A stretch of 33,138 nucleotides of DNA from Thiomargarita sp. GTDB taxonomy: Bacteria; Pseudomonadota; Gammaproteobacteria; Beggiatoales; Beggiatoaceae. Below the pieces are notes generated by a model. That model was not told the origin of the DNA. It ran no database searches and worked only from the letters and a program-made list of their open reading frames with translations. Made by a program: the position numbers and the translations under genes. Below are positions 476-31,000 of this stretch, in pieces (within the stretch, counting starts at the first letter, position 1; each line of letters opens with the position of its first letter). The stretch lies in assembly GCA_020721045.1 (NCBI GenBank), contig DYNN01000024.1, positions 1 to 33,138 on the forward strand. Reading direction: 5' to 3'.

Positions 476-2221
476 ATGATGAAATTCTGCTTTGTCTTTG
501 TTTGCCAAGCGGGCGAACTAGAAATTAAATCTTTGTTGTTAGCCGCTTCATTACGGCAATATGTCCAAGGAGATTATGAATTAGTCGCCGCATTGCCACA
601 ACCAGTTGCACGTTGGGGCACATTATCAACAACGACTACCGCTTTACTGCAACAACTTGATATTCGTACTGTTCCAATTACCAATAATATTGATGAAAAC
701 TATCCTATTGCTAATAAGATCGCTTGTTTGGGAATTGCCACGCCAGCAGAAAAAATTATTTTTTTAGACAGCGATATTCTTTGTTTACAACCTATTATAC
801 TCAATAATTACTTTTCTGCTGATTTTAACGCAAAACCAGCTGATTTAGCCACTTTTGGCAAAAATCCGCAATTGTGGCAAAAAGTTTATCAATTGTTTCA
901 ATTACCGCTTCCGGCTTGGCAGACACTTTCAACAGTTTCACGTGAGTTAATGTTGCCTTATTTTAATGCGGGTGTGATTGCGATCAAAAATAATCCAAAG
1001 TTTGCCAATACTTGGGAAGAATGTTGTCGAATTATTGATGCTGATACCAGTATTTCGCATAAACGCCCTTGGTTAGATCAAATTGCGTTGCCCGTTGTAA
1101 TAACACGTTTAAATTTAACCCATTATTGCTTAGATGAACGATTTAATTATCCCGCTCATCTAAAACCTTTATCAAAAAACACCTTCTTTTGTCATTATCA
1201 TTATCCGGTTGTCATTAGGCGAGAGCCTGTTTTAAATAAATTGGTGAATCAATTGGTTGACCGTTATCCAGCTTTAAAAACATTGTTAGAAACTGATGCG
1301 CAATGGGCAACTTTGTTGCGACCGCCGGTATTGCAAAAATTGCCCAGAAAATGGTTTATTCGCCCATTGATTAGTGCTAAAAAACCAATGTCTGATGCGC
1401 CGGGTGCGATTATTACAGGGATGCCACGTAGCGGTACGAGTTATTTATGTCGGTTATTGCATAGTTTACAAAATTGTGTAGTGATTAATGAACCTACTGC
1501 GATTTTTAAACCTTTGGAAAATGATGCTATACCGTGGCAATTGGCAATTTTTTATCAAGATTTGCGTCGTCATATTTTAGAAGGTTATCCTATAGAAAAT
1601 AAAATTAAGGATGGACAACTAATTGAAGATACAGCAATTATTGATGAAAGAAATTTATATTATCCTCAAGTAAGTCATCGTCATTTTATGTTATGCACTA
1701 AAAATACCTTGGCTTATATGGCAAGGATTCCGCAGTTGAGGCAGGTATTACCGCATATGCCGATTATTGCTTGTTTTCGTAATCCTTTTGATACGATTGC
1801 TTCATGGAAATCGACTTTTTCTCATTTACAACAAGCCGATGTAGCGCATTTTCCAATTGGGCATGTTGCTGATCCATTTTTAACTTCTTGGCAACGTCAA
1901 AGATTACAACAAATTGCAATGACGCCTAAGTTGGCATTAAAACGCGCATTGTTATGGGCTTATTTGGCAGAAATCTTGCTTATTTATCAAAATGATATTA
2001 TTCTGCTACCTTATGAAACTTTAGTGACACAACCTACTCAAATATTAAGAGAAATTTTAAATAAAGTTCCCAATATTCCCACCCTATATCCTACGGAAAA
2101 AATAACTGCTTCAGTTGTACGTCAAAAACGCAATTTATTGACCACAGAAGATATTGAAGCAATTCATGATGTGTGCGGGCAGTTGATGATTGAGTTGGAA
2201 AGTGCAACTAATCATAGGTAG
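476..2221 (+). CDS. Bifunctional glycosyltransferase / sulfotransferase fusion protein
   Basis: This 581-residue protein joins two domains. Residues 1-250 look like a GT-A nucleotide-sugar transferase: a beta-strand start (KFCFVFVC), FLDSD at 96-100 as the metal-binding DxD-type motif, and PYFNAGVIAI at 161-170, typical of GT8-like enzymes. Residues 308-575 look like a PAPS-dependent sulfotransferase: GMPRSGTSYL at 315-324 is the 5'-phosphosulfate loop, CFRNPFDTIASW at 433-444 is the 3'-phosphate-binding segment, and LLPYETL lies at 510-516. No signal peptide or membrane segment is visible, so it is probably cytoplasmic. It may glycosylate and sulfate a surface polysaccharide, lipid or other acceptor; the substrate cannot be read from the sequence. 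It stands alone between the IS remnant and the CheW gene. Both domain calls are good; the joint function is inference. Confidence 0.8.
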   Translation: MMKFCFVFVCQAGELEIKSLLLAASLRQYVQGDYELVAALPQPVARWGTLSTTTTALLQQLDIRTVPITNNIDENYPIANKIACLGIATPAEKIIFLDSDILCLQPIILNNYFSADFNAKPADLATFGKNPQLWQKVYQLFQLPLPAWQTLSTVSRELMLPYFNAGVIAIKNNPKFANTWEECCRIIDADTSISHKRPWLDQIALPVVITRLNLTHYCLDERFNYPAHLKPLSKNTFFCHYHYPVVIRREPVLNKLVNQLVDRYPALKTLLETDAQWATLLRPPVLQKLPRKWFIRPLISAKKPMSDAPGAIITGMPRSGTSYLCRLLHSLQNCVVINEPTAIFKPLENDAIPWQLAIFYQDLRRHILEGYPIENKIKDGQLIEDTAIIDERNLYYPQVSHRHFMLCTKNTLAYMARIPQLRQVLPHMPIIACFRNPFDTIASWKSTFSHLQQADVAHFPIGHVADPFLTSWQRQRLQQIAMTPKLALKRALLWAYLAEILLIYQNDIILLPYETLVTQPTQILREILNKVPNIPTLYPTEKITASVVRQKRNLLTTEDIEAIHDVCGQLMIELESATNHR

Positions 2222-2280: not shown

Positions 2281-3771
2281 ATGACAATTTCTTCAGAACA
2301 AGCCACACATTGGCATCTTGCATTGCCGTCGATGAAAGAGATCACGGAGCCAATATTGCCAGTTGTTATCAACGATATTACTTTTGGTATCCCATTGAAT
2401 CAGGTGCAATATGTGGATCATGTCGGTGATTTAACGCCGTTTCCATTAACTTCATCGCCTATTGAAGGTTTAGTACGATTTAATAATTTGCCATTAATCC
2501 AACTCAGTGTTGCACAAGCCTTGGGGTTTGAAAGTAAAAATGAGGGGAAATTGGTCATTGTTAGATTGCCACAAGGTTATTTAGCATTGAGAGTTGATGA
2601 AGTTCTTGGATTTGTGCATTCACAAGGAAAAGCTGATGAAATGGAGCCAACTCAACAAATACCTTTGCTTAAATTAACAGAAATATTTCCTTGGATTAAA
2701 GATAATCATTATGCGCTTTTAATGGATTTTTCTCCTGAAATTAGCAAAAAAATCAAACAAAATAAGGAACTTAACAATTATATTTTACTTGTTTCTTCAG
2801 GAGATTATACAATTGGTTTGTTAGCTGATAGTGTTGATCGCATTGAAGGAATTGATGAATCGTTGCCATTAAGGAAGTTTGATACTGATGCCGATTTGTT
2901 GGTTCGGATTGAAGATGTTTTATTACCGGCACGTTCTTTAAGTACTTTATTGAGCGTGAAAAGTAAGGAAGAACGTCAGGCAATTTTAATCCGTGGTATG
3001 GATAAGGCTTCGGTATTGGCGGTTGAACGGGTATCGCGTTTAGAAAAAATCGAGCATTTTCATTTGACTATTTCTCCTGTTGGTCATAAAAGTTTGTGGC
3101 ATTTAACTGAGGATAAAAAATCAATTGAAGTCGTGAATGCGAGAGAGTTTTTTTGTAAACCACAGGAATACAATAAGTTATCAATCGTTAATCCTCAGTC
3201 TCGTTGGGATAATTTGCCACAATTGGCTGCTAAGTTGAGTACTGAAGGGGTGCGTGTACGGTGTGGTGATGTGATTTGTGTTTTACCCTTGACAATCGTC
3301 GATCGTATTTTAGGTGATTTAGAAAAGGAAGATTTGGCATTAGTAGATTCTAATGAGATGGAAGAAACAGACTTAAATGTAGATTCTGTCATGCAAAAAT
3401 GTGCGACTGATAAAATTCCAGTGATTGATTGTGTTACGTTATTTGGTCAAAAACATTGTTCTAATGCTGTTGATAGTTATGTGTTGCTTTCTTTGCCATG
3501 TGGTTATGTGCTGATTGCTGTACATCAAGCAGAATTACAGCCTACTTTGCCTGATAATCAGTGGTTTCCACTCGCTTTTATGCCGCCTATCGCTACATTT
3601 TTGTTTGATATGGCAACTTTTAGTGACACCGAGAATCGGTGGATATTTCGAGTAAAATCTCAACTTAATTTCTCTACTTTTCCTTGGAATATTAAACGGT
3701 TATTTGTGTCATCTTTATTAAAATGGGTCTATTTTTCCGAAAATAAGTCCATTAATCTTGAACAAAATTAA
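2281..3771 (+). CDS. Protein with three CheW-like modules
   Basis: This 496-residue cytoplasmic protein is built of CheW-like adaptor modules. Module 1 (about 26-150) opens with PVVINDITFGIPLNQVQYV, the characteristic start of a CheW fold, and has GLVRFNNLPLIQL. Module 2 (about 165-290) has NYILLVSSGDYTIGLLADSV and VRIEDVLLPARSL. Module 3 (about 322-445) has VRVRCGDVICVLPLTIVDRI, PVIDCVTLFG and YVLLSLPCGYVLIAV. CheW proteins couple chemoreceptors to the kinase CheA, and single-module CheW is about 160 residues. A three-module chain could bridge several receptors or kinases in an array. The stop is 12 bp before the start of the chemoreceptor gene, so the two are almost certainly co-transcribed. 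The modules are divergent, and which can bind CheA or a receptor is unknown. Confidence 0.8.
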   Translation: MTISSEQATHWHLALPSMKEITEPILPVVINDITFGIPLNQVQYVDHVGDLTPFPLTSSPIEGLVRFNNLPLIQLSVAQALGFESKNEGKLVIVRLPQGYLALRVDEVLGFVHSQGKADEMEPTQQIPLLKLTEIFPWIKDNHYALLMDFSPEISKKIKQNKELNNYILLVSSGDYTIGLLADSVDRIEGIDESLPLRKFDTDADLLVRIEDVLLPARSLSTLLSVKSKEERQAILIRGMDKASVLAVERVSRLEKIEHFHLTISPVGHKSLWHLTEDKKSIEVVNAREFFCKPQEYNKLSIVNPQSRWDNLPQLAAKLSTEGVRVRCGDVICVLPLTIVDRILGDLEKEDLALVDSNEMEETDLNVDSVMQKCATDKIPVIDCVTLFGQKHCSNAVDSYVLLSLPCGYVLIAVHQAELQPTLPDNQWFPLAFMPPIATFLFDMATFSDTENRWIFRVKSQLNFSTFPWNIKRLFVSSLLKWVYFSENKSINLEQN

Positions 3772-3783
3772 CAAAGGATTTTT

Positions 3784-6531
3784 ATGAATTCAGCCGCTCT
3801 TATTAAAACGCGTCTTGTTTTTCTCGTTATTGTGTTATTTTTCATCATAACCAGTCTATTTGCGTTTAATCGTATGGATGCGTTAAATCAAAAATCGACG
3901 GAGATGGAGGTCAATTGGTTACCCAGCATTGTTAAAATTAATGCAGTTGCTACCACAATGGGTAACTACAGAATTGCCGAACTACTTCATGTATTTTCAC
4001 TTGTTCCGCAGGAAATGGAGCAACAAGAGAGAGAAATGGATCGTCTGATTCAAGAATTAGCAACGCTGAAGAAAGAATATGAGTTGCTCATTACTTCGGA
4101 GAATGAGCGTGCTATCTATCAGAATTTTTTGATCAAGACTGATGAATACTTAGAATCTAGTAAAGAAACACTTGACTATTCTCGAAAAAGTGAAAACGAT
4201 CAAGCGGTGTCACAGTTGAAGAAAAGCAATATTTTGTTTAATGCTTTTAGAATCGAATTAGCTAAATTAGTTGAATTAAATCAAGTCGGTGGTGAAGAAG
4301 CGAGTCGTGGAGGGAATGAAATTTTTGCAGAAGCACAAACTGTTATAATTATTGTCAATATTGTGGTCATAATTGCTATTTTCATCATTATGTTCTTAGT
4401 AGAAGGATGGGCTTCTCGTACTGAAACCAGTGTTGTTATTGAAAATGATGCAAAATATGCACAAGCCAGTTTCATTAATCGATTAAGTATCAGGGCGAAA
4501 TTGCGTGCTGCTTTTTTAGGATTGGCTACTTTATTTATGTTATTTACTTGGTTGTCTCTCAATCGTATGAATTTGGTTAATCAACAATCGACAGAGATAG
4601 AAGTCTCTTGGCTACCCGCAGTTGTCTCAATTAATGCAGTAAATACAGCAACTAGCGATTTAAATACCGCTTTATTTAAGACGATTTCATCAAAAGATGA
4701 GAATGAAAAGATGCAGCAAGAAAAATCAATGCAGGCAATACAAACCATGATTGCTGAACAGTTGCGCACATATGAACCAACGATTGAGACTGATGAAGAA
4801 CGCAATATTCATCGTGAATTTAACAGAAAATATAGTGAATATTTAGCGGCTATTAACGAAGCATTGGAACTTTCTCGAAAGACGAACAAATTTAATGATA
4901 AACCTTTGGAAGTGACAACTGACACTCAAGCAAATGAGGATAACAAACCCATAGAAACAACTGTGGTTGAATCTGTTGAACTTTCACCCGCACAACAAGA
5001 CGACATACTGAGTGCACAGTTACAGCGAGTCGATATACTGTTTGATGATATGTCTATCGATTTATTGAAATTAGTTGCATTTAATAATAAGGGTGCTAAA
5101 GATTCGAGCCATGAAGGTAATCGACTTTATGAATTGAGTCTCACAGTTTTAATGGGTGCTAGCACTTGTGTTTTAATTTTAGCAATATTTTTAATGGTAT
5201 TATTTGAAAAAACAGTTTCACGTCCATTGACGCGTTTGGCAACAATTGTAAAGGAAGTTGCTGAGGGTAAAGTCGTTATTACCGAAGAATACGCTGATCG
5301 ATATGATGAAGTGGGTTATATTGCTAAAGCGGTGAGAGGTATTACTCAAACTTTAGATACCTTGCTTAAAGATTCTGCTGAATTAATTAATGCCGCACAA
5401 ATGGGTGTTTTATCTACACGGATTGATGCTGCGCGTCATCCTGGGGAATTTGGTGTCATTATTTCTGGTATGAATCAATTACTTGCCATCTTGAGCAAAC
5501 CCTTAGTAGAAGTGGCAGAAGTGATGCAACAATTAGCATTAGGTAATCTCAATAAACGGGTTGAAGGAACTTATGAAGGTGATTTACGTACTTTAAAAGC
5601 CAATGTTAATCGTAGTTTAGATTCGTTGGTTGTTCTATTGACAGAATTGGGTGACATCACGAAAAATATGGCAGTAGGTGATTTAACTCATGTAATTGAA
5701 GGTAATTATCAAGGCGATTTTTCTGCTTTAAAATTAAATACAAATCAATCGCTTAAACAAATGAAAGAGATACTTTCTATTGTTGTGGCTAATACCGAAC
5801 ACATTGCTTTAGCATCGACTCAAACGGTGTCAGCCGCCGAACATGTTTCTGAACAATCTGCCAAACAATTATCCGCCTTAGACGAAGTCGCTGCAGCAGT
5901 GGTAGAAACGTCAGCCGCTATTGGACAAATTGCGGATAATACAAAGAGAAGTGGTGAATTAGCTGTGTCAACTGCAGAGTTGGCAGCAAACGGTCGTACT
6001 CAACTCATTAAACTCACTGAAATTATTGAGAAAATTTCAGAAGAATACAAACGAATTGAACAAATTACCACTAAAATCAATCGTATTGCTGATAAAACTC
6101 ATTTACTTTCATTAAATGCCGGTTTAGAAGCAGTGCGTGCAGGTGAACATGGTTTAGGATTTGGCTTTGTGGCACAACAAATTGGTAAATTAGCAGAAGA
6201 AGCTTCACTTTCAGCGCGTGATATTGGAACGCTTATCGCTAATTCATCGCAAAGTGTTTCCTTAAGCGTCAATACTGCTCAACAAACGCGCATGGCAGTG
6301 GAAAATATTGCCAAAGCTGCACAAGAAAGTGGTAGTGCTGTTGAATCTATTTCTGCTGCAATTACTCAACAATCGTCTGCAACTGATTGGATTTCTGAAC
6401 AAGTGAGTAAAATCCAAGGTGGCGGGCAAGAAAATGCGGCAGCCGCCGAAGAAATTGGTGCAACCATGTCAAAATTGTCAGAAACTATTCAAGAAACACA
6501 TACGCAGGTACAACGCTTTAAATTGGCATAA
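3784..6531 (+). CDS. Methyl-accepting chemotaxis protein with duplicated 4-helix sensor
   Basis: This 915-residue chemoreceptor has four membrane segments (about 9-28, 186-206, 241-258, 452-473) instead of two. The segments enclose two related periplasmic helical sensors (29-185 and 259-451). Both begin with the same pattern: FNRMDALNQKSTEMEVNWLP in the first and LNRMNLVNQQSTEIEVSWLP in the second. After the last membrane helix come a HAMP domain (475-525) and two or three further HAMP-like helical segments to about 665 (for example ALGNLNKRVEGTYEGDL and AVGDLTHVIEGNYQGDF). The signalling hairpin (670-915) has its tip at IADKTHLLSLNAGLEAVRAGEHGLGF (middle part at 768-793). Its role is to relay a signal to CheA, presumably through the CheW-like protein encoded 12 bp upstream. 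The channel gene follows with no spacer. The ligand is unknown. Confidence 0.9.
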   Translation: MNSAALIKTRLVFLVIVLFFIITSLFAFNRMDALNQKSTEMEVNWLPSIVKINAVATTMGNYRIAELLHVFSLVPQEMEQQEREMDRLIQELATLKKEYELLITSENERAIYQNFLIKTDEYLESSKETLDYSRKSENDQAVSQLKKSNILFNAFRIELAKLVELNQVGGEEASRGGNEIFAEAQTVIIIVNIVVIIAIFIIMFLVEGWASRTETSVVIENDAKYAQASFINRLSIRAKLRAAFLGLATLFMLFTWLSLNRMNLVNQQSTEIEVSWLPAVVSINAVNTATSDLNTALFKTISSKDENEKMQQEKSMQAIQTMIAEQLRTYEPTIETDEERNIHREFNRKYSEYLAAINEALELSRKTNKFNDKPLEVTTDTQANEDNKPIETTVVESVELSPAQQDDILSAQLQRVDILFDDMSIDLLKLVAFNNKGAKDSSHEGNRLYELSLTVLMGASTCVLILAIFLMVLFEKTVSRPLTRLATIVKEVAEGKVVITEEYADRYDEVGYIAKAVRGITQTLDTLLKDSAELINAAQMGVLSTRIDAARHPGEFGVIISGMNQLLAILSKPLVEVAEVMQQLALGNLNKRVEGTYEGDLRTLKANVNRSLDSLVVLLTELGDITKNMAVGDLTHVIEGNYQGDFSALKLNTNQSLKQMKEILSIVVANTEHIALASTQTVSAAEHVSEQSAKQLSALDEVAAAVVETSAAIGQIADNTKRSGELAVSTAELAANGRTQLIKLTEIIEKISEEYKRIEQITTKINRIADKTHLLSLNAGLEAVRAGEHGLGFGFVAQQIGKLAEEASLSARDIGTLIANSSQSVSLSVNTAQQTRMAVENIAKAAQESGSAVESISAAITQQSSATDWISEQVSKIQGGGQENAAAAEEIGATMSKLSETIQETHTQVQRFKLA

Positions 6532-7977
6532 ATGGAAACACCGAATCAACCGAAGAGGGTTTTAAGGGGGATTATCATTCCCCTTCTTTTAAGCACCCTA
6601 TTTGGGGGTTTAATCTATTACGGCGGAGATGCTTACCAAGCCATTGGTTTAGCGGGTATTGGAACTGCCCGTATGGTATTAGGTTATTTACTGGGTATCG
6701 GTACCTTTTTAACATTAGCTGTGTTGTTGCAACGCTTAGTACAATATGTTTTTTTAGATTGGATTATTGCATCAGCCATTGGTTCGCAACCGCCACGTTT
6801 ACTCAGTCAATTATCCGCTTTTTTTGTTTACCTGTTAGCATTTACCGCCATTGTCGGTGTTGTATTTAAACAAGATTTAACCGTCGTATTGGCGGCATCG
6901 GGGGCAATGGGTATCGTGGTCGGTCTTGCATTGCAAAGCTTGATTTTAGATATTTTCGCCGGATTAGCACTGAATCTTGATCGCATTATTAAATTGGGTG
7001 ATAACGTACAGTTGCATAAAATTGGCGATCAAACGATTGAGGGTAAAGTGGTAGAAATTAGTTGGCGTACGATGCAAATCGTTGATGTTTATCAAAATAC
7101 GGTTGTAATACCTAATCGTTCAGTTTCATCAGCGACGATTACTAATTTTTCATCTCCTAAGCCACTATTAGGAACAATTATTCCTGTCATATTAGATAGC
7201 AAAGTGCCCGTTGATCGGGCGATGCGTATTTTAAAAGCAGCAACGATTGAGGCATTAGCAATTATTTCCCCTTTATCTGAGGTGCTTGAACCGACTATTT
7301 TGGTTTCTGAGATTCTCCATACGCCACGTGCGGTAAAGTACGGTATTTATATTTTTGTACCTTTTGAAAAACGCGCACGTAGTCGAAATTTAATTCAACA
7401 ACAAGTACTTAAACATTTAAGTTTTGCTGGAATTAGAGCCGCACAACAAGAATTACCGAATACGGAACATTTGGTAACATTGATTGCATTAACAGACCTA
7501 TTTAGCGGTATGGACGAAATCAGTGTTCATTGGATGGCTAAACACGCCCACTTAAAGAAAGTTGATGCTAATAAATCAATCACGCAACGTGGTGAAATTG
7601 CAGAGGTGATTTTTTTAGTGATTGAGGGCTTATTAACTGCAGAAAACCGGCATCGTATTGGTGCAAAACCGTCTTCACCAACAATTTTAGGTCCAGGCAG
7701 TTTGATTGGTGGTACAGCGATGTTGATGAACGATGTTTATGAGGCAACCGTATTGAGTAAAACGGCTTGTTTGTTGTTTGAAATTGATTTTCATTTGCTT
7801 GAAAGCGTATTAATGCAGTATCCTAAAGTGGTTGATATTATCGTGCACAACATTTCACAACTCATTATGGCAAAAGATGCTATGAGCAATCAGCAATGGC
7901 AAATGCAGGAAGAAGATATGATAGCTGAAGTGCTTAGAAATTTGAAACGCCGTTTTGGTCATATAAAATCGATTTGA
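6532..7977 (+). CDS. MscS-type channel with C-terminal cNMP-binding-like domain
   Basis: This 481-residue inner-membrane protein has N-terminal helices (about 12-30, 45-68, 95-112) and then the MscS pore helix and beta domain. The pore region VLAASGAMGIVVGLALQSLI (119-138) is rich in Gly and Ala, as in MscS; VYQNTVVIPNRSVSSATITN follows at 186-205. Residues about 320-440 resemble a Crp-type nucleotide-binding fold (VIFLVIEGLL, ILGPGSLIGGTAMLMN, EATVLSKTACLLFEID). This matches the MscS/bacterial cyclic-nucleotide-gated family. The phosphate-binding cassette looks degenerate: the usual Gly-Glu and Arg-Ser/Thr-Ala residues are replaced by GGT (393-395) and VYEAT (402-406). Nucleotide binding is therefore doubtful. 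ATG directly abuts the chemoreceptor stop (TAAATG), which implies translational coupling and a shared role, perhaps linking membrane tension or osmotic state to the receptor complex (inference). Confidence 0.85.
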   Translation: METPNQPKRVLRGIIIPLLLSTLFGGLIYYGGDAYQAIGLAGIGTARMVLGYLLGIGTFLTLAVLLQRLVQYVFLDWIIASAIGSQPPRLLSQLSAFFVYLLAFTAIVGVVFKQDLTVVLAASGAMGIVVGLALQSLILDIFAGLALNLDRIIKLGDNVQLHKIGDQTIEGKVVEISWRTMQIVDVYQNTVVIPNRSVSSATITNFSSPKPLLGTIIPVILDSKVPVDRAMRILKAATIEALAIISPLSEVLEPTILVSEILHTPRAVKYGIYIFVPFEKRARSRNLIQQQVLKHLSFAGIRAAQQELPNTEHLVTLIALTDLFSGMDEISVHWMAKHAHLKKVDANKSITQRGEIAEVIFLVIEGLLTAENRHRIGAKPSSPTILGPGSLIGGTAMLMNDVYEATVLSKTACLLFEIDFHLLESVLMQYPKVVDIIVHNISQLIMAKDAMSNQQWQMQEEDMIAEVLRNLKRRFGHIKSI

Positions 7978-8056: not shown

Positions 8057-8608
8057 ATGCCACAAGATGTCAATCATTTGATTTGGATAGATTTAGAAAT
8101 GACGGGTTTGAACCCTGATGTTGATGTCATTATAGAAATTGCTACAGTAATTACTAATGCCAATTTAGAAGTAATTGCTGAAGGACCCGTATTAGCAATT
8201 CATCAAACCGATGAAATATTAGCAACAATGGATGAATGGAATACTCATCAACATGGTAGCTCAGGTTTAACAGAGCGAGTTCGACAAAGCACAATCACTA
8301 TGGCTGTTGCCGAAAATTTAACCCTAGATTTTTTACGACAGCATGTGCCTGAAAATACTTCTCCTATGTGTGGTAATAGTATTTGTCAAGATCGACGATT
8401 TTTGTGGCATTATATGAATGAATTAGAAAAATATTTTCATTATCGTCACATTGATGTAAGTTCATTGAAAGAACTGAGCAAACATTGGGCACCCAAAGTG
8501 GCGGAAGGATTTAAAAAAGAGTCGAATCATCGTGCCTTAGATGATATTTATGATTCTATTAATGAACTTAAATATTATCGTACGCATTTTTTGCAAACAA
8601 CATTGTAA
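8057..8608 (+). CDS. orn: Oligoribonuclease
   Basis: This is a 3'-to-5' exoribonuclease of the DEDDh family that degrades very short RNAs, including the dinucleotide pGpG left by c-di-GMP hydrolysis. The 183-residue protein has normal family length and the catalytic set in canonical places: D12 and E14 in [10 protein letters not shown]112 in [10 protein letters not shown]158 and D162 in NHRALDD. The GGDEF/EAL protein encoded downstream would make pGpG if its EAL domain is active, so Orn is relevant to c-di-GMP turnover here, although the enzyme is a housekeeping one. It is followed 20 bp later by aat in the same direction. An AAGGA lies about 15 nt before the ATG, rather far for a ribosome binding site. 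Confidence 0.97.
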
Positions 8609-10864: not shown

Positions 10865-12916
10865 ATGCAGGCAGAACAGTTACCTCAAGATCAACTGCTT
10901 TCCAAATTACAAAGCTTTTGCCAAAAACTTGACAATTTAACTTCAGAAAAAATGAATTTAGAGTATGCGCTGAATCTTCGTGAAAATTCGCTTTCCACTA
11001 TTGAAATAGAAATACGCGATAGATTAATAACATTGACGCAAAAATTAACAGAGTTGCAACAAGAACGGGCGCAATTAGATTACATTTTAAAAGCGATTTC
11101 TTTATATACAGATGATTCTGAAAAGAAAATGTTGATTGCACACGCTAAATTGGAACAAGAAGTTTTTAAGCGAACTCAAGAACTGGCTGAAAAAAATACT
11201 TTATTACAAACAGAAATTAGAGAGCGTCAACGAATTGAAAATGACTTGCGATTAGCCGCAACCGTTTTTCAAGCGAGTAACGAAGGCATTTTTATTACCG
11301 ATGCCCAATATAAAATCATTAAAATCAATCCCTCCTATACTAATTTAACCGGTTATACCGAACAAGAAAGTTTAGGGAAAACTTTAGATATACTCCGATC
11401 AAAACGACATCATGATGATTTTTATAGAAAAATGTGGCAAGCATTAACGATTGTCGGTTATTGGAGTGGTGAAATATGGCATCAGCGCAAAAACAGCGAA
11501 GATTTTCCCAGTTGGCTCAGCATGAATGCAGTGAAAAACGATCAAAATGACGTAATTTACTACATTGGTATTTTTACAGACAATACCTACCAAAAACTCT
11601 CTGAAGAACGTGCTTATTATCTGGCAAATTTTGATGCCTTGACCGATTTATCCAATCGAATTTTATTTCAAGATCGCTTACAACAAGTACTTAAATGGGC
11701 GCAACGCGATCAACATTGGGTCGCCTTACTACTGATTGATTTAGACCATTTTAAAGCAATTAATGAAGCTTTTGGACATACATCAGGTGACCAACTTGTG
11801 CGCATGACAGCGAAACGTTTAGTCAGTTGTTTACACGATGAAAAAGATGCGATTGCCCGTTTGGGCGGTGATGAGTTTGTCATTTTACTAAGCGATTTAC
11901 AACCTAATCAGCAAGCATTACAAGTCATTTCCGATTTAGCTGATAAAATTTTGACCAATTTACAACAACTTTTTATTTTAGACGGACATGAAGAACAAGA
12001 AATTTTTATTACCGCGAGTATTGGCATTACGATATTTCCCCAAGACGGTCAAACTGTTGCCGCACTGTTAAAAAATGCGGATTCTGCACTTTATGAAGCC
12101 AAAGAGTTAGGGCGCAATAATTATCAATTTTTTACTAATACAATGAACGTAGTTGCACATAGACGATTGACTTTACAAAATTGTTTACGACGTGCATTGG
12201 AACGAGACGAATTACTTCTTTATTATCAACCACAAATTGACGTATATACCCAAGAAGTCGTTGGTGCAGAAGTATTATTGCGTTGGGATCACCCTAAATA
12301 CGGAATGATAGCACCTTCTGAATTTATTCCGATTGCAGAAGACAGCGGCTTAATTATTCCAATTAGTGAATGGATATTAGCCAAGGTATGCGAACAACGT
12401 CAAGCTTTTCAACAACAAGGATTAAAATCAATTCGTATTGCTGTGAATTTATCCGCACGTCAATTTCATTATGATGGTTTAATTCCAAATATTATCAGTA
12501 CATTAAAAAAATACGACCTGTCAGCTGATTGGTTAGAATTAGAAATTACTGAAACTATTGCCATGAGCGGCGCTGACAAAACAATTAACATGTTAAAAGC
12601 ATTGAAAAATCTTGGTATTTTATTAGCAATAGATGATTTTGGTACTGGTTATTCATCACTGAATTATTTAAAATATTTTACTGTAGATACTTTAAAAATA
12701 GACTCATCTTTTATCAAAGATATTACCACTACTAACGGGGCAGCTTTAGTCGTTGCTATTATTAACATGGCACACAGCTTACAAATGACCATTGTAGCTG
12801 AAGGTGTTGAAACAGAAGAACAACTTATCTTTTTGCATGAACATCGCTGCGACATAGTACAAGGTTATTTCTTCTATCGTCCCTTATTACCCAATGTGTT
12901 GGCAAATTTACTATAA
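10865..12916 (+). CDS. PAS-GGDEF-EAL c-di-GMP synthase/phosphodiesterase
   Basis: This 683-residue cytoplasmic protein lacks membrane segments. Residues 1-130 are largely coiled coil. A PAS domain follows (131-245, from TVFQASNEGIFITD to YYIGIFTDN). The GGDEF domain (about 250-425) has an intact active site RLGGDEF (332-338), so it should make c-di-GMP from GTP. The inhibitory I-site RxxD is replaced by DEKD (325-328), so product feedback is probably lost. The EAL domain (about 435-683) has the variant EVL (469-471), and NLSARQF, ELEITET, AIDDFGTGYSS (588-598), KIDSSFI, AEGVET and QGYFFYRPL, the residues needed for phosphodiesterase activity. The last codons (RPLLPNVLANLL, stop) are the first copy of the downstream tandem repeat. 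Net activity is uncertain. Confidence 0.93.
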   Translation: MQAEQLPQDQLLSKLQSFCQKLDNLTSEKMNLEYALNLRENSLSTIEIEIRDRLITLTQKLTELQQERAQLDYILKAISLYTDDSEKKMLIAHAKLEQEVFKRTQELAEKNTLLQTEIRERQRIENDLRLAATVFQASNEGIFITDAQYKIIKINPSYTNLTGYTEQESLGKTLDILRSKRHHDDFYRKMWQALTIVGYWSGEIWHQRKNSEDFPSWLSMNAVKNDQNDVIYYIGIFTDNTYQKLSEERAYYLANFDALTDLSNRILFQDRLQQVLKWAQRDQHWVALLLIDLDHFKAINEAFGHTSGDQLVRMTAKRLVSCLHDEKDAIARLGGDEFVILLSDLQPNQQALQVISDLADKILTNLQQLFILDGHEEQEIFITASIGITIFPQDGQTVAALLKNADSALYEAKELGRNNYQFFTNTMNVVAHRRLTLQNCLRRALERDELLLYYQPQIDVYTQEVVGAEVLLRWDHPKYGMIAPSEFIPIAEDSGLIIPISEWILAKVCEQRQAFQQQGLKSIRIAVNLSARQFHYDGLIPNIISTLKKYDLSADWLELEITETIAMSGADKTINMLKALKNLGILLAIDDFGTGYSSLNYLKYFTVDTLKIDSSFIKDITTTNGAALVVAIINMAHSLQMTIVAEGVETEEQLIFLHEHRCDIVQGYFFYRPLLPNVLANLL

Positions 12917-18133: not shown

Positions 18134-21100
18134 ATGAATCGATTAATAATAATTTTTATCTCTCTCTTTGTCACCTTTCATTCTCTACCTAGTGATGCAA
18201 TGGAGGAAAAATCAGCTTCTACCCCATTGGAAATTATGTCGGTTAAAAGTACAACGGCTCCGTTGGTTATTCCTAAAACTCAATTAACTTTATCATTTTT
18301 GCACCAGAAACAGCAGGCATTAAATGAAACACAAGTGGTATTAAAACGTGGAATTCATGGTTTAGTCAATGAGCAAAAAGAATTGACTAAAAATATCGCA
18401 AATTTACCTTTGACTGAAGTGACATTGAAAATGGTAGAAGATGCTAAATTAACTCAGGATTCTGCCAATATTGAAATAGAAAAATTATTATTAGAACAAC
18501 AAACTGCAGAAGCTAATTTAGATAAACAATCAATTGCTCTTAAAGAGCAGCAAACAGTATTAGAAACGCTACAAAAAACACCGGTAACAACACCCGAACA
18601 ACAAAGTGAACAAAGTAAGGCAATTGATGAATTAAAAGATACCATCGTTTTGCAAGAAGAAGCGATTATTTTAGAAAAACAAGCTGTCAGTTTAGCTAAA
18701 GGACAAGTTGATCTGGCTAGCAAAAAATTACGTTTATTAACAACATGGTATGAATATTTGCAAAATACTTACCAAGCACGTGAAAAGCAAGATTTAGAAT
18801 CACGTTTACAACAAGAACAGCAGGTGCATATGGCGCGTGCTACTTATTTACGTCAAGAATTGGAAAAAACACCCAAGCAGTCGATGGCAGCCTATTTATT
18901 GGAAACGCAAATCCAAGATGCTGATGAAAAATCACAACATGTTGCCCGTAAACTTAAAGTATTCTCTATTCGGGAAGAATTGAATTATTTAACTTTAACG
19001 GCGGAAGATGCGCATGTTGACATATTACCTAATATGTTAGATAAAACTGTTGAAATAGACCAAGAATTAAGCGAATTACAAACATTATTAGGTAACAAAA
19101 TTTCTGTTTTACAACAACAACAAACGGTGAGTGAACGACGCAAAGATATGCTTTCAGATCAAGAATTGGTAGATAATACGCAAATCAGTTTGTTATTGGA
19201 AGGATTAATTAATATGCTGAAAAATCAAGCGGATAAATTGCCAATTTTATTAACCCAGAATCAACAATTGCAAATAATTCTTGCAGAACAGTATAAACAA
19301 GAGTTACGGCGTGATTTACTCAAACAGCGGCAATTACCTACCACAACTGCTGGGTGGACGTTGTTGTTACAAGAGGTGTTTGCGATACCCGCTACTTTTT
19401 TAGGACAATTATATTTAACTGGACGCGCTTTTATTCAAACATTTCAGCAAACTTCTGTCCAAGCGTGGTCATTAATTGGAATTATTAACCTAGTTATTAT
19501 TGGATTAGTAATCTGGAGTAGAACATTATTATTACGAGCTGGAGATGCGATACGCAAAGTGGCAATACGTACATTTGTAGCAAATAATTTATTGATTAGT
19601 ATAAAATTATTGTTTCATAACTTGGTAATTATTGCAATTACACTTGTTTTATTGTTAATCATTTGGATTGCGCGTCCAAATCAGGCAGATAGTTTTCTTG
19701 TGCTGAGTTTGCTATTCATTGGTCTAGGCACTAAGTTGTTGATTGATATAGCTTGGTTACTTCTGGTCGATAAAGAACTGAGTGAGAAAAGATATAATCC
19801 TAAGTTGTACAAGCAAATCGTTTGGATTATCACTTTTACTAGCATTTTAACTGCGATCACTGTATTAGCGCATTTATTGTCTAATGTATCACAAACATTA
19901 CGTGAATTATTTGATAGCCTCTTCATGTTGTTTTTATCACTGACGGTTTTTCCTGTTGCTCAAATTCGTCATATGACATTGAATTTTTTAGCAGAAAAAG
20001 CAATTAAAGGTTATTGGTTATTAGTCATTCAACTCACGAGTTTATTGATACCGCTCTCCATCTTAACCGTTTCGATTTTAGGCGTGATAGGTTATATCAA
20101 TTTAGGATGGAACGTCGCTAAACATTTGAGTTTGTTCTTATTAATTTTAACAGGTTGGCTAATTGCGCGTGGTTTATTACGAGATGTGATCATTTTCTTT
20201 AAAAATTTTGCCATTAAACACAGTCATTATGGATTATTATGGACACAAGATATTATTCCTTTAGTTCACAAAATGTTAGGGCTGGCATTATTCATTTTTG
20301 CAACGGTGGGATTATTTTGGATTAATGGCTGGTATACTGACATTGCAGTATTAGAAAGTATTAAATATTTCTTTGATTATCAACTATTTGATATAGGAAA
20401 TAGTCAAGTTAGCATTGGTACCCTACTGCTCGCTATAGCTACCTTGTGGATGGTTTTTTGGTTTGGTAGTTGGTGTCGACAAATTACCTATCGTTGGATT
20501 TACATTGGAATCAATGATTTAGGAATTAGACACAGCCTTTCTGTATTTACACAATATGCAGTCGTGTTGATTGGATTATTAATCACTTTACGAATTATTG
20601 GCATTGATTTAACGACATTAACTATCTTTGCGGGGGCGTTGGGTGTGGGGATTGGGTTTGGTTTACAAAATATTGCGAATAACTTTATCAGCGGCATTTT
20701 GCTATTGATTGAACGTCCTTTGCGAACAGATGATATTGTTAATATAGCTGGTACTTACGAAGGGCGTGTCACCAGAATTGGGATTCGCTCGTTAACGATT
20801 CAGTCGTGGGATCACAAGGAATTTATTGTGCCTAATTCTGAAATTATTTCTAATACCTTTACCAATTGGACGCATTCTGATCAGGTTTTGCGAACTACGT
20901 TGTACGTTAATACCAGTTATAATAATAATCCGCATGATACGATAGAAATTTTATTAAAAGCGATGAAAAAAACGCCAAACGTGCTAAAAGACCCCTATCC
21001 ATTTGTGACTGTGTGGGATTTTGCAGATTCTTCGATTAAATTTAGAATAGATTATTATATTAATTTGGTAAATGCAGATGGTTTGGAAGTGCGAACTGCA

Positions 21101-21235
21101 ATTTTACTACAAGTTTGGGATGATTTACAGAAAGCGGGTATTGAAATTCCTTATCCACAATATGATTTACATCTCAAAACGTTGGCAGAGCCTTATGAAA
21201 CGATGTTAATGAAAAGCCCGCGTAAGTCCGATTAG
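18134..21235 (+). CDS. Large MscK-type mechanosensitive channel
   Basis: This 1033-residue protein has an N-terminal signal peptide (RLIIIFISLFVTFHSLPSDA), then a periplasmic Gln/Glu-rich coiled-coil region to about 425. A set of roughly ten membrane helices follows (about 445-830, for example SLIGIINLVIIGLVIW). The MscS core is at 824-1015: pore helix TIFAGALGVGIGFGLQNIAN, then LLIERPLRTDDIVNIAGTYE and DHKEFIVPNSEIISNTFTNW. This layout matches MscK/MscM (about 1100 residues), channels that release solutes under hypo-osmotic shock. Start ATG 18134 gives the signal peptide; no good Shine-Dalgarno sequence precedes it. The last codons (RKSD, stop) lie inside a palindromic repeat, so the natural C-terminus may have been replaced. 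It is the second MscS-fold channel in the window. Confidence 0.92.
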   Translation: MNRLIIIFISLFVTFHSLPSDAMEEKSASTPLEIMSVKSTTAPLVIPKTQLTLSFLHQKQQALNETQVVLKRGIHGLVNEQKELTKNIANLPLTEVTLKMVEDAKLTQDSANIEIEKLLLEQQTAEANLDKQSIALKEQQTVLETLQKTPVTTPEQQSEQSKAIDELKDTIVLQEEAIILEKQAVSLAKGQVDLASKKLRLLTTWYEYLQNTYQAREKQDLESRLQQEQQVHMARATYLRQELEKTPKQSMAAYLLETQIQDADEKSQHVARKLKVFSIREELNYLTLTAEDAHVDILPNMLDKTVEIDQELSELQTLLGNKISVLQQQQTVSERRKDMLSDQELVDNTQISLLLEGLINMLKNQADKLPILLTQNQQLQIILAEQYKQELRRDLLKQRQLPTTTAGWTLLLQEVFAIPATFLGQLYLTGRAFIQTFQQTSVQAWSLIGIINLVIIGLVIWSRTLLLRAGDAIRKVAIRTFVANNLLISIKLLFHNLVIIAITLVLLLIIWIARPNQADSFLVLSLLFIGLGTKLLIDIAWLLLVDKELSEKRYNPKLYKQIVWIITFTSILTAITVLAHLLSNVSQTLRELFDSLFMLFLSLTVFPVAQIRHMTLNFLAEKAIKGYWLLVIQLTSLLIPLSILTVSILGVIGYINLGWNVAKHLSLFLLILTGWLIARGLLRDVIIFFKNFAIKHSHYGLLWTQDIIPLVHKMLGLALFIFATVGLFWINGWYTDIAVLESIKYFFDYQLFDIGNSQVSIGTLLLAIATLWMVFWFGSWCRQITYRWIYIGINDLGIRHSLSVFTQYAVVLIGLLITLRIIGIDLTTLTIFAGALGVGIGFGLQNIANNFISGILLLIERPLRTDDIVNIAGTYEGRVTRIGIRSLTIQSWDHKEFIVPNSEIISNTFTNWTHSDQVLRTTLYVNTSYNNNPHDTIEILLKAMKKTPNVLKDPYPFVTVWDFADSSIKFRIDYYINLVNADGLEVRTAILLQVWDDLQKAGIEIPYPQYDLHLKTLAEPYETMLMKSPRKSD

Positions 21236-25010: not shown

Positions 25011-28000
25011 TTAGGGTAATTGGTAAATGATCTGTTTATCACCGTTAGCATGTACTAGCATGAAATCTGGAATAAAATCACCGTTAATGTCAGCTACTTG
25101 GGTAAATTGAATTCCGCCGGTTGCTAATTCTGTCGATTCAATTTGATAAGCAGCAATCCCTTTGATTAATTTATCATTTTCTGCTAATTCAACATAACCT
25201 GAATGTTCAAAACGTACACCGGTTATATTGGGCATTTGGCTGAAAAATGTGTATAAATCAGCTCTATTTTTAATTGCCGGATATAGCGTTTGTTGTCGCT
25301 TGTTGCCTAATGGATCAATAAATACCAAGCTTAAGTTGGGTTGATTCAACACTTGACTGGGCTGTTCTGCTAAACCAATCGGTGTTTCCATCGTTGTCAA
25401 TGGTGCACTCAAATCTGGACGTGCTTCAAAAGTTAAAAACTCATTTTGTACCAAACGCAAATTGCCGTCTTCTTGCCAGCTAAGTGATTGAAAACCACGT
25501 TGTTGTACCGCACGTTCTAAACCACGCCAATCTTGTACCATTGGTTGGGCAAAAAGTTGTCGCGCAGATTGGGTAATAAATTCAACTGACCCATCAGAAT
25601 GTAACATGACTTTGGGCAGCGTGCCGGCTGGCAACTGATCAACGTAATTAGTGCGTAATAAAATCCGCGTACTACCTTGATAAAACAGCAAATCACCTGT
25701 TACTTCTTGACTCACTAAATAGCCACCATAATAAATATCCGGAATCGCTTGTAATTCAGAGATAATCGAAGGTAGAGGTAATAAATACAAAATTTGCTGA
25801 TCACCATTACTGTAAATGACTTTAATATCTTCACTGCCATCACCATTTTGATCCGCGATCGACAAGAATTGGGTAAATCCGTTAGCCGATCCAGTTTCCA
25901 CTTTATAATCGTACATAGCCGTATAAGTTACTTCATTGAGCGTCACCGATAAACTGCCATTATTATAAAACAAAAGATTCTTTGCACCTGGTAATTCAGT
26001 TAAAGCCGCTTTTAATTCAGCGGGATGAGCAGCGGATGGATAAAGCAATTGTTGACGAAAAACGCCCATATTATCAGTGTAGTGTAAGGCGGTTAGATTC
26101 AATTGCGTGGACAAAGTCGCCGGAAACATTGTAATTCCTTCACCGATTTCTGTTTTTGTTGCAGTTTTATCCGGACGTGCCAAATAATAATACTGACCCA
26201 ATGTTGCAGTTTTAATATTGCCGTCGGCATAAGCGGTAAAACCGGCGATTCCCCAATTGTTCAACATTGTTTCTAATGCCAGCGGATTTTCCAATGCCGG
26301 TTGCGTTAAAACTGCTCTACCCGTTGCTGTGACAAATAAAACACTACCATCAGGATTTACAGTAATGCCCGCAATTTGTGTTGATTGGGTCACGGCAATA
26401 GGTGCTAAAATAATGTGTTCTTCTCCTAATACCAAGAATAATACGCCCGTTTCTGGCGATTGGGTAAAAGCTAAACTATTATTTTTTAGATCAGGTAAGG
26501 CATTAATTTCGTTTAATAAAGTATTTTCAGTGCCAACGAGCACATCTGTATATAAATTGACCAAGCCACGATGACTAATTGCATCATAAATATAAGGTAA
26601 AGCAGCCGTTAAATCGATACCCGCTGGAATATTGGCATTGCTAGCAAATTTCACATTAGTCACCAATTTCACAGAAGGATCCAAACTACACCCAACACCG
26701 AGAATCACATGACTCAATTCAGCACCAGCCGCTACTTGTACACCATTGAGAGTCGCGGGATTATTAGCATCTTTACCGATAATTTTGCCTTGTAAAATAC
26801 CACCATTAATAGTTGTATCAGCCTGCAATTTTGCACCGTCAATAATGCCATCATTCGTAATCGTATGCCATAATTCACCACCACCTGTAACAAGGGTATC
26901 TTTCAAAATATGCACATCAGATAACAATCCAAAATTAGTAATGTGACCAGCTAAATTGCCGCCTTTTACCCAACCAGCAACATCGATGATATAATTAGTC
27001 AATGTCTTACCGGTATTGTCATAAGCACCTTCTATTATATTCAATAATACGTTGATTTCTTTATTAATAATGGTGGGAGCGTCTGGATCAAAAGATTGGC
27101 TGGTAATCTGTGTACTACTGGTTACTACACCTTTTTGATTGGGTTTAGCCGTAATCGTCACGATACTGCTAGCGTCTTTACTCAAGCTTGCTAAATTACA
27201 AGTCACCTTATCGGCAAAATAAAAACACGCTTCAGCATTTCCATCTATTTGAGCAGAAATAAATTCCAAACTAGCCGGTAATGTATGTACCAAAACCACA
27301 GTTGACGCAGCATCTGGTCCTTGATTCACAATAGTAAATTGATAACTCATCGGTGAGGCAACCACAACGGGATTAGGCGTAGTCGCCACAGTCACAGTTA
27401 AATCAGCCGTTGCTGCCGCTTCTGTTTCAACCGTAGCTGAACTGGGAGAAATTGGATCAAACTGACTGGCAGACACGTTCACTGAATTAATCAATTTAGC
27501 TGTTTTCGTGGGTGTGACAACGATTGTTACTGTCAATTTACCGTCTTTGTTTAACGTACCTAATACACAGTTCAACATATTTTGCGCTTCTATGTGACAT
27601 ATGCCTTGTGAAGGCGTATAAGAAACTAAATCAACACTATCTGGTAAAGTATCAAATAAACGCACATTGGTTGCTTGATCGGGTCCATGGTTCTCTACAG
27701 TCACAGTATAAGTTAAGTTTCTGCCTACGCTGACTGGGTCTTCACTTTCTGTAATAAAAACAGCAACATCTGCACTGGCAATACGAAGTACACCAACGCC
27801 ATTATCTGTAAAGCCAGCTACGTAAATATGAATTCCTGTTGGATCAATAGCCACAGCACGCGCACCACCCAAACCATCAACACCGTTTTGCCCATCGGTC
27901 AAACTATCAGTGTATGTCAACAATCCAGTCGTTGCATCTCGTTTAAAGACAACGAGCGCACTGTCTCCAGTAGAAGCGACATAGAGGTAATTACCCATGG

Positions 28001-31000
28001 GAGTCAACGCAATTCCAAAGGCACCGGTTAAATTTTGCGCATCACCATTACGAATAATCGTTTTATAAGTTAAAAGTCCCGTCTGTGCGCGTTCAAATAT
28101 GGCTATGCCGCTATTTGAGCCACCGCCAGTCGTATAAACATGTTTACCCTCTGAGCTAATAATCACTGAATTAACTGATTTTAAGCCTTCAACGCTTTCT
28201 ATTCCTTCAGTCAAAGTTTGCAAATAAGTTAATTGACCGGTACTTAAATCACGGCTAAATACAGTCAAATTACCGCTATTGGTACTGGTTGCTAAAACAT
28301 TGGTACCATCTTGACTGATAGTTAAGTGACTGACACCATCTAAAAGTACAGTATCACTACTAGCAATTTTTTCTACAAAAGTGAGTTCGCCAGACTGGTC
28401 ACGACTGAATACGGCAATCGCATCGTCTGTGACTCCCGCTACATAAACATGATTGGCAGTGACTATAACAGAAAATGCACCGGCTATTCCGTCAATTCCC
28501 TCTAAACCATCTTTATAAACTTTTTTAAATTCAAGCGCACCGGTTGTGGGATTTACGGCGTGTACGCTGATTGCATTATCGCTAAAACCTGTTGCATATA
28601 CGAAAGTGCCGTCTGGACTTACTGCAACACTACTGGCTGCGGCTAATCCGTCAACGCCGTTACTACCGTCTAGTAATACTTGGGCAAAACTAAGAGTTCC
28701 TGTTTTAATGTCACGACTAAATACGACTAAAGAATTATCATTAAAACCAACGGCATAGAGGTGTAATCCATCAGGGCTAAGCGTTATATCGTTCACTCGA
28801 TTTAATCCGTTCACACCGGCGATGCCGTTTTTCTGGGCTTCTACAAAAAATAAACTAGCAGGCATGACGACGCGATTTTCAGATGTCACGGTGTTATTTT
28901 CTAATACGGGATCAGATTCTAAACTTTGTATTTGTGCTACGTTGGTCACGGTTCCGGCAATATCTGGTTGTGTGATAAGTGTAACTGACGCCGTTTTATC
29001 TAAAGCCAAGTTTTCTATGCTACATGTCACAATGCCGCCAGTACCCTCTTTATCAAGCGGTATGCAACTACCAGCCGGCTCAACTGTTGCTGCTAAAAAC
29101 GTCACATTTTCAGACAATGTATTAGTTAAGACAATACCAGTTGCAACATCAGGTCCAACATTTTTAATAGTCATAGTGTAAGTCAATGGATTTGCTACTA
29201 AAACCGGATTAGGATCGGAATTGACTGTTAAGCTCAAATCACTGTTGTATTCGCTAACTATTGTTTCCACTTCAAGTTTATTATTGCTTTGTACTGGATC
29301 AAAAATAGGACTGTTGGCAGCGACTGCTGTATTGTATTTACCGACAATTAAGGGTCTGATTTTAGTCACTAATGTCGCAGTATCGTCTTTATTAATCGTG
29401 CCCAATTGACAAGTAATAACATTTTCAGTTTGCGTACATGTTGTGCCTTGACTGCTTTCTGTCGAAATAAATTCAATATCAGTCAATGGCAATGTCTGTT
29501 GTAAAACTACTCCTGTAGCGTCGCTGGGTCCTTTGTTCAAAACTGTGACGGTGTAACTGAAGTTTTTTTCTATAAATGGTACGGGTGGATTTGTTTCTAA
29601 TGTGACTTCTAAATCTGCAATTGCATTGGAAACTGTGACTTCTCTTGTCGCAATATTGGGTATCGTTGGATCGTAGTAAAATCCCCCCTGCCCCCTTTCA
29701 TCAAGGGGGGGAACAGCTTCGACTACTAGGGAAAGTGTGCCTAATTCTGTGGGTGTGATTTCTATCACTACGCTGTCTTCTGCACCGGATTCTAATGGAT
29801 CAAGCACACAGTCAATTTTGGTGGCTAAACCGCAGGGGTTGTTGATGATTGCATTGGCTGCACTTTCTAAAATTCCTGTTAATTTAACTGCGGCGATATT
29901 GGGTCCATTGTTGGCGACTTTGATGGTAAAAGTAAAGGGTTTGTTTAATACGGCTGGATTTCCGCTGTCTGTGATGGTGACAACAATGTCTGCCATGTCT
30001 CCTGTAATTGTAACATTTGCAGAATCAGCATTATTGGTGTTGTTTGTATCTGTGCCATTGCCTGTTACGATGAATGTTGCATTTGCATTTGGAATAGATT
30101 GAATGGCTTGTGCGCGTATATGAACAATTGTACTGGGATTTCCTACTGCATCTAAAGTACCTAATGCACAACTGAGTTTGCTGAGTGCTTGATTACAATG
30201 TCCCGTATCGCTGATATAACGGACTTGTGAAGGTAATGTAGCGGTTAATAAACTACCTGTTGCGGCTGTTTCACTTTGATTGACAATTGTGACATGGTAG
30301 GTCAAATAATTTCCTACTGATATAGAATCGGGTTCTGCATAAGCATTTGTAATCGCTAAATCTATATTTAATTCACTGACATGCGTGCTAACCATTGCGT
30401 TGTTGTTGGTTTGAACTGGATCAAATTCGCTACTGGTGACGGTGCTGGTCAATATAATTTCTTCAGTACTGGTCACACTGGGCGTATCTACGATAATTTC
30501 TGTGTTGTTCAATGATTCTGTTGCAAGGGTGGCGTAATTACAGGTTAGTTTGTGTGTAGCCAGTTGATAATTACATTGTGCGTCATTGGAAGATACATAA
30601 GTCATTGAAGTAGGTAAGGTATGCACCACTTTAACAGATGTTGCGTTATCGGGTCCATTATTGTTTGTTGTGATTTTATAAGTAACCTCATTATTAACGC
30701 CCACTGGATCAGCTATGGAATCAATTTTCAGTTGTAAATCAGCAGTTGGAACAGAGGCTTGTAATGAGGTGGTTTGTGTAATTGTATTATTGGCGGCATT
30801 ACCATCTGGTTGACCACTACTTGCTGTGGCTTTATTAACTAAACTGCCATTTCCCACAGAGCTAGGCGAAGTCATGGTGAGTGTTATTTTTGCGTTTGCA
30901 TTAACATCTAAGCTATTCAATAGACACGTTATATTATGAGTTACAGTGTCGTGATTACAATTGCCAGAACTGCTCGTTGCTATAACATTTGTCACGCCGC

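What the first reader, a model, noticed from the sequence alone, without database searches (positions are those of the whole stretch)
2281..7977. CheW-triple / chemoreceptor / MscS channel operon
Three genes with spacings of 12 bp and 0 bp encode a three-module CheW-like adaptor, a chemoreceptor and a mechanosensitive channel with a regulatory domain. The TAAATG joint implies equimolar translation of receptor and channel. A channel built into a chemosensory operon suggests that osmotic or mechanical state is coupled to receptor signalling, a combination I do not know as a described system.
Basis: inference. Interest (0 to 1): 0.6.

Follow-up and report, generated by a model that had tools for sequence, protein, structure and literature searches.

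The report
Chemoreceptor, adaptor and ion-channel gene trio
In a relative of the filamentous sulfur bacterium Thioploca, and in a few unrelated bacteria, a chemical sensor, its adaptor protein and an ion channel are inherited together as three neighbouring genes, which suggests a sensor that works through a channel instead of the usual kinase.

Summary
Genes at 2281-3771 (triple CheW), 3784-6531 (chemoreceptor) and 6532-7977 (MscS channel) are 12 bp and 0 bp apart; the channel's 'regulatory domain' is a cyclic-nucleotide-binding fold. Six further records have the trio in the same order: three of the same family, two gammaproteobacteria of two other families, and Azospirillum plasmid pAB510b; in one (G019) two genes are broken. 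Six loci compared share no flanking ORF. Trio channels and trio receptors each form one clade, with compatible branching. None of 28 related channels outside that clade has a receptor hit nearby.

Three features point away from the textbook pathway. The cassette Glu and Arg are missing in seven of seven trio channels but present in 18 of 27 others. The receptor tip differs from the host's other 11 receptors at 11 of 40 positions. Complete genome G763 gave no CheW-family match, so no ordinary CheA; but that search also missed its own trio adaptor.

Best reading, inferred: receptor and adaptor control the channel directly.

The parts
2281..3771 (+). triple CheW-like adaptor, 496 aa
   Evidence: orthologues
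2362..2634 (+). CheW module 1 (aa 28-118); the place of the NLRG stretch of ordinary CheW reads RFNN
   Evidence: Pfam E 8.8e-14; alignment
2773..3150 (+). CheW module 2, approximate bounds
   Evidence: hhalign P 0.057, in register; Pfam hits in orthologues
3238..3690 (+). CheW module 3, approximate bounds
   Evidence: hhalign P 0.034, in register; Pfam 2.2e-4, below the curated cut-off, in G265
3784..6531 (+). chemoreceptor (MCP), 915 aa
3802..4308 (+). four-helix-bundle sensor module 1 (aa 7-175); hydrophobic stretches at 11-29 and 187-205
   Evidence: Pfam 4HB_MCP_1; hydropathy
4474..5202 (+). second four-helix-bundle module; hydrophobic stretches at 242-260 and 455-473
   Evidence: Pfam: 4HB_MCP_1 in two stretches, TarH at 230-367; 35% identical to module 1
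5434..5622 (+). HAMP_2 (aa 551-613), the best of two HAMP_2 stretches
   Evidence: Pfam
5956..6471 (+). MCP signalling domain (aa 725-896)
   Evidence: Pfam 2e-24; lowest-scoring of the 12 MCPsignal matches in the genome
6085..6204 (+). hairpin tip of the receptor (aa 768-807), diverged from the host's other MCPs
6532..7977 (+). MscS-superfamily channel with C-terminal cNMP-binding fold, 481 aa
6940..7152 (+). MscS beta-domain (aa 137-207)
   Evidence: Pfam
7555..7821 (+). cNMP-binding fold (aa 342-430)
   Evidence: Pfam 1.7e-8
7702..7752 (+). phosphate-binding-cassette equivalent (aa 391-407) without the usual Glu and Arg

Best explanation
A kinase-free chemosensory unit. The receptor senses a periplasmic or membrane stimulus with one to three four-helix-bundle modules and passes the signal through HAMPs and its coiled coil to a specialised hairpin tip. 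The tip binds the triple-CheW adaptor. The receptor-adaptor complex docks on the cytoplasmic part of the MscS-type channel, probably on the degenerate cyclic-nucleotide-binding fold, and sets its gating, so that the output is ion flux and not CheA-CheY phosphorylation. Shown: the conserved three-gene unit, its co-inheritance, the diverged tip, the absent NLRG stretch in the adaptor, the absent Glu and Arg in the channel's cassette. Inferred: physical contact of the parts, direction of signalling, gating, the stimulus, independence of CheA.
For: Seven trios in the same order: window, G002, G019, G026, G265, G763, Azospirillum sp. B510 pAB510b. Trio channels are one clade (100/100 among 34 rows, 27 of them other channels) and trio receptors are one clade (100/100 among 18 rows, the other 11 being the host's own MCPs), with compatible branching. 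An MCP hit lies by 6 of 6 trio channels outside the window and by 0 of 28 non-trio channels. No shared flanking ORF among six loci. The cassette's Glu and Arg are absent in 6 of 6 trio channels, while 18 of 27 others have both; the seventh lacks them too (read by eye). Receptor tip: at 11 of 40 positions the seven trio receptors share no residue with the host's other 11 MCPs. NLRG is absent from module 1 of the seven adaptors. G763, one contig and rated 100% complete, gave 0 PF01584 matches at E <= 0.001 (3 candidates scored) where the three other genomes of the call gave 17 to 39; an ordinary CheA ends in such a domain (recalled).
Against: No interaction or gating data. One search also missed G763's own trio adaptor (29.9 bits by hmmscan), so a divergent CheA could be missed; no CheA-specific family was searched in any genome, and 'CheA-type' here means a long ORF (600 aa or more) with a CheW domain. 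Such ORFs exist in the five other trio genomes held, and in G002 the trio lies about 9 kb from a cluster with CheA-type, CheW and MCP genes. The receptor keeps tip residues of ordinary MCPs (such as LNA, EA.RAG, GF) and an AAEEI stretch that looks like a methylation site (motif recalled). In G019 adaptor and receptor are broken by two copies of a 198-nt repeat while the channel frame is intact. The adaptors are only 17-24% alike between families, 30% for G265 against Azospirillum. 9 of 27 non-trio channels also lack Glu, Arg or both. No usable structure model.
Confidence: 0.45

Rival explanations
1. The channel is the sensor: tension, ion flux or crowding gates it, and its state is passed to the receptor and through CheW to a CheA elsewhere in the genome.
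For: CheA-type ORFs (by length and CheW domain) in G000, G002, G019, G026 and G265; trio about 9 kb from a che cluster in G002; MscS relatives are often tension-gated (recalled).
Against: No CheW-family match in complete G763, hence no ordinary CheA (with the limit that its own trio adaptor was missed); tip and NLRG diverged; the receptors have 4HB sensor modules of their own.
Confidence: 0.2
2. The genes are co-transcribed and co-inherited because they serve one lifestyle trait, but the channel is an ordinary valve and the receptor feeds normal arrays; there is no physical coupling.
For: No interaction data; operon neighbours need not touch; in G019 the channel frame is intact while adaptor and receptor are broken.
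Against: These three genes are kept together in four families and two classes, with no shared flanking ORF among the six loci compared; compatible gene trees; Glu and Arg absent in the trio channels; tip diverged.
Confidence: 0.2
3. The channel's fold still binds a ligand other than the usual cAMP or cGMP, and receptor plus adaptor only place or scaffold the channel.
For: The fold is still recognised by Pfam in 6 of 6 trio channels scanned (G019 was only aligned), and the altered cassette is nearly the same in three of the four channels of the window's family.
Against: The cassette differs between the window's family (GG, then YEAT or YNFT) and the other three trios (DA or D-, then H..T), unlike a fixed binding site.
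Confidence: 0.1

Closest known systems
MCP-CheW-CheA chemosensory systems (flagellar, type IV pilus and other-function classes; class names recalled)
   Same: Receptor with 4HB, HAMP and MCPsignal domains beside a CheW-domain adaptor
   Different: No CheA-type gene in the seven trio loci; the adaptor is a triple, diverged CheW; the receptor tip differs from the host's other MCPs; a channel is the third fixed gene
Bacterial cyclic-nucleotide-gated (bCNG) channels of the MscS superfamily (Caldwell et al. 2010 and Malcolm et al. 2012, seen only as entries in the reference list of PMC4560390)
   Same: MscS pore domain plus C-terminal cNMP-binding fold (that this is the bCNG make-up is recalled)
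   Different: Trio channels lack the Glu and Arg of the phosphate-binding cassette and follow a chemoreceptor gene in 7 of 7 records
YnaI and MscS channels
   Same: YnaI is the best solved match for the pore and beta-domain (5.3e-12); a small-conductance channel entry, 2vv5, follows at 1.4e-7
   Different: They have no cNMP fold and no known chemoreceptor partner (both recalled)
CheA with two CheW domains (PMC10542144, one passage seen) and triple-CheW proteins in other contexts (L094, and ORFs of 532 and 518 aa in G265 and G150)
   Same: Several CheW modules in one chain
   Different: The three triple-CheW proteins seen here score strongly for each module; the trio adaptors are far more diverged

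Membership tests
CheA-based chemosensory system | receptor with MCPsignal domain | tested here: met
CheA-based chemosensory system | CheW-domain coupling protein | tested here: met
   diverged, NLRG absent in module 1
CheA-based chemosensory system | CheA kinase in the unit | tested here: not met
   no long CheW-bearing ORF within the trio loci held
CheA-based chemosensory system | CheA somewhere in the genome | tested here: inconclusive
   long CheW-bearing ORFs in G000, G002, G019, G026 and G265; none detected in G763; CheA-specific families not searched; Azospirillum genome not searched
CheA-based chemosensory system | canonical receptor tip | tested here: not met
   at 11 of 40 tip positions no residue in common with the host's 11 other MCPs; the rest is partly or fully shared
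bCNG channel | MscS pore/beta-domain fused to cNMP-binding fold | tested here: met
bCNG channel | phosphate-binding cassette with Glu and Arg | tested here: not met
   0 of 6 trio channels, 18 of 27 others; the seventh also lacks them
bCNG channel | gating by cyclic nucleotide | not testable with these tools
   needs electrophysiology
MscS mechanosensitive channel | MscS beta-domain with pore helix | tested here: met
MscS mechanosensitive channel | gating by membrane tension | not testable with these tools
   needs electrophysiology

The most novel reading that the evidence does not exclude
A chemoreceptor-gated ion channel: a self-contained, horizontally spread receptor-adaptor-channel cassette in which a bacterial chemoreceptor and a triple CheW drive an MscS-type pore directly, with no histidine kinase, and the old cyclic-nucleotide fold turned into the docking site.
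Probability: 0.4. Interest if true: 0.9.

Novelty: new variant of a known kind. Interest (0 to 1): 0.7.

Why it matters
Chemoreceptors are understood as devices that control the CheA kinase. A conserved cassette in which receptor and adaptor travel with an ion channel, and not with a kinase, would give these receptors a second kind of output, ion flux, and would make electrical or osmotic signalling by chemoreceptors directly testable with three genes. It would also offer a candidate partner for one branch of the MscS channels that carry a cyclic-nucleotide-binding fold.

Tried and rejected
AlphaFold models of the triple CheW and the channel, from two-row alignments, were unusable (mean pLDDT 31.4, and 39.7), so no fold search was made. 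hhalign of CheW modules 2 and 3 gave only P 0.057 and 0.034; the module count rests mostly on orthologues. Considered and dropped: chance adjacency (7 of 7 in the same order; 0 of 28 non-trio channels with an MCP hit nearby) and a larger conserved operon (no shared ORF of 100 aa or more among six loci at E 1e-6; only 4 such ORFs were held for G026, and Azospirillum was not in that comparison). Nearest outsider to the trio receptor's signalling part among 57 relatives: G007, 142 bits against 411-749 for the four trios; the channel query found nothing in the 14 kb held around it. Promoter and terminator scan: 13 promoter-like sites against 21.0 expected, 8 terminator-like against 4.3; it settles nothing. 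Channel relatives in viral contigs: none. One phage hit to a stretch of the G763 receptor (8e-6, 37% of the query) was not followed.

Papers. Combination searches: one search listed 3 papers, none, two; of these I saw passages of PMC3180692 only (it lists channel genes, with no link to receptors in the passages shown), the rest as listings. (receptors without CheA) gave 0 papers. Searches gave listings; from them I looked at passages of PMC4560390, PMC7666581 (not used) and PMC10542144. The library is openly licensed papers only.
Full report
OBSERVATION. Three + strand genes lie at 2281-3771, 3784-6531 and 6532-7977, with gaps of 12 bp and 0 bp. Pfam finds a CheW domain in the first, two 4HB stretches, HAMPs and an MCP signalling domain in the second, and an MscS beta-domain plus a cyclic-nucleotide-binding fold in the third. 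The next gene downstream, oligoribonuclease, starts at 8057 and begins a housekeeping run (orn, aat, arginyltransferase).

THREE MODULES. In this copy only module 1 is found by Pfam; modules 2 and 3 align in register with ordinary CheWs (four of the host, three of other genomes) at P 0.057 and 0.034. Orthologues make up for it: module 2 is found by Pfam in G026 (25.8 bits), G265 (1.3e-9) and Azospirillum (1.4e-9), and module 3, below the curated cut-off, in G265 (2.2e-4). In G265 the adaptor lies in two overlapping frames beside a run of ten C; sequencing error and slippage cannot be told apart.

CENSUS. The adaptor was sought in 57 relatives: extensive matches in 4 of 36 family members (G000, G002, G019 in two pieces, G026) and in 0 of 21 others; a fifth genome, G011, has only a weak ordinary CheW match. 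The channel in the same 57: these four score 384-1030 bits, the next best 165. Among 369 genomes drawn from the class only G265 joined G000 and G019 (429 bits; next 181). Among 398 drawn from the phylum only G763 joined G000 (487 bits; next 268). In some searches at most four and three candidates per genome were scored. Among 72,556 plasmids one record, Azospirillum sp. B510 pAB510b, has a channel at 472 bits against that of G763; the next has 153. Thioploca is a gammaproteobacterium of the Thiotrichales.

CONSERVED UNIT. In all seven records the order is adaptor, receptor, channel. The receptor-channel gap is -8 to +32 bp, and the adaptor-receptor gap 12 to 179 bp in six (not measured in G019, whose adaptor is broken; starts chosen mechanically). 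Azospirillum carries them as AZL_RS21530, RS21525 and RS21520, annotated as CheW, four-helix-bundle MCP and mechanosensitive channel, on a plasmid typed as mobilizable. Among six loci (window, G002, G019, G026, G265, G763; 82 ORFs of 100 aa or more outside the trio, 4 of them for G026) no ORF is shared at E 1e-6. Trees of the channel (7 trio, 27 other) and of the receptor's last 300 residues (7 trio, the host's 11 others) each put the trio on one branch at 100/100, with compatible splits: window with G019, then G002, then G026; and G265, G763 and Azospirillum together, their inner order open in the channel tree. The tool warned of an odd letter make-up for Azospirillum and of long branches for L091 and L092; MCPs of other hosts were not in the receptor tree. 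At one threshold, an MCP hit lies by 6 of 6 trio channels outside the window and by 0 of 28 non-trio channels. Four of the 28 hold under 1 kb of DNA on one side, and a few are near-copies. The same call finds the adaptor by sequence in only 3 of the 6; the others (G265, G763, Azospirillum) rest on position and Pfam.

SIGNS OF A CHANGED PATHWAY. (1) Receptor tip: at 11 of 40 positions the seven trio receptors share no residue with the host's other 11 MCPs. Over 48 columns the window's tip is 92-100% identical to those of the three family members and 56-62% to G265 and G763, against 44-50% to the host's other 11, so it looks constrained and not decayed. (2) Adaptor: the NLRG stretch of ordinary CheW (name recalled; seen in the host's CheW) reads RFNN here and is absent from module 1 of the six others. 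(3) Channel: the Glu and Arg of the phosphate-binding cassette (roles recalled from CRP) are absent in 6 of 6 trio channels; of 27 related channels 21 have the Glu, 18 the Arg and 18 both. The seventh trio channel lacks them too. (4) G763, one contig, rated 100% complete: 0 PF01584 matches at E <= 0.001, with 3 candidates scored, while the three other genomes of the call gave 17-39 and 7 of 14 control genomes rang. Limit: G763's own trio adaptor (29.9 bits in hmmscan) was missed as well, so only a CheA with an ordinary CheW domain is made unlikely. No CheA-specific family was searched.

SENSOR MODULES. Pfam counts one 4HB stretch in the receptors of G002, G265, G763 and Azospirillum, two in the window and three in G026. 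The window's two are 35% identical; its second is closest to the single one of G002 (52%). The input side varies in copy number while the output side does not.

AGAINST. The window's genome has CheA-type ORFs (long, with a CheW domain) on C230, C19 and C252, and the other four trio genomes with such a search, apart from G763, have them too. In G002 the trio is about 9 kb from a cluster with CheA-type, CheW and MCP genes. The receptor keeps much of the ordinary tip. In G019 two inverted copies of a 198-nt repeat (96% complementary) interrupt adaptor and receptor while the channel frame is intact; this may be recent decay, but a channel that works alone is possible. The trio is patchy: 32 of 36 family genomes lack the adaptor. 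All mechanism is inference.

MECHANISM. I judge most likely (0.45) that receptor and adaptor act on the channel directly. Uncoupled co-inheritance 0.2; an unusual ligand of the fold 0.1.

NOVELTY. Searches for MscS with chemoreceptor and CheW, MscS with MCP and cNMP-binding, mechanosensitive channel with chemosensory and CheA, and CheA-independent MCPs turned up no such system, judged from listings and passages of PMC3180692. The library holds only openly licensed papers. The bCNG papers were seen only as reference-list entries. As a gene unit it is a new variant that joins two known kinds; if the gating claim holds it would be categorically new.

Noticed in passing
L037:2614-6108 and L038:5496-8924 (own genome C51 and C175); L096:4750-8547: ORFs of 1142-1265 aa with an N-terminal periplasmic-binding / ANF-receptor domain joined to an MscS domain and a cNMP-binding fold that has the cassette Glu and Arg: candidate ligand-gated channels. 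Many long ORFs of the family match the trio channel, up to 16 matches in one genome.
   Followed up: partly
L033:10595-10792 and 11908-12105: Two inverted, 96% complementary copies of a 198-nt repeat interrupt the receptor and the adaptor of the G019 trio; looks like a short mobile element.
   Followed up: partly
L088:6104-6113: Run of ten C beside which the G265 adaptor changes frame: sequencing error or slippage.
   Followed up: no
window 3784-5202: The number of four-helix-bundle sensor modules varies from one to three among the trio receptors.
   Followed up: yes
L094:1752-3215; G265 C206 ORF of 532 aa; G150 C24 ORF of 518 aa: Triple-CheW proteins in other contexts with strong CheW scores for each module.
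   Followed up: no
window 18134-21235: A second MscS-superfamily ORF, 1033 aa, in the same window.
   Followed up: no
window 25011-32285: ORF of 2424 aa on the - strand with repeated DUF11 domains and lactonase-type beta-propeller matches.
   Followed up: no
window 476-2221: ORF with a C-terminal sulfotransferase domain and a weak match, below the cut-off, to glycosyltransferase family 8 in its N-terminal half.
   Followed up: no
L160:7458-8546: Hypothetical gene 19 bp before the Azospirillum trio adaptor; only a weak match, below the cut-off, to the neurotransmitter-gated channel ligand-binding family (0.0057).
   Followed up: no
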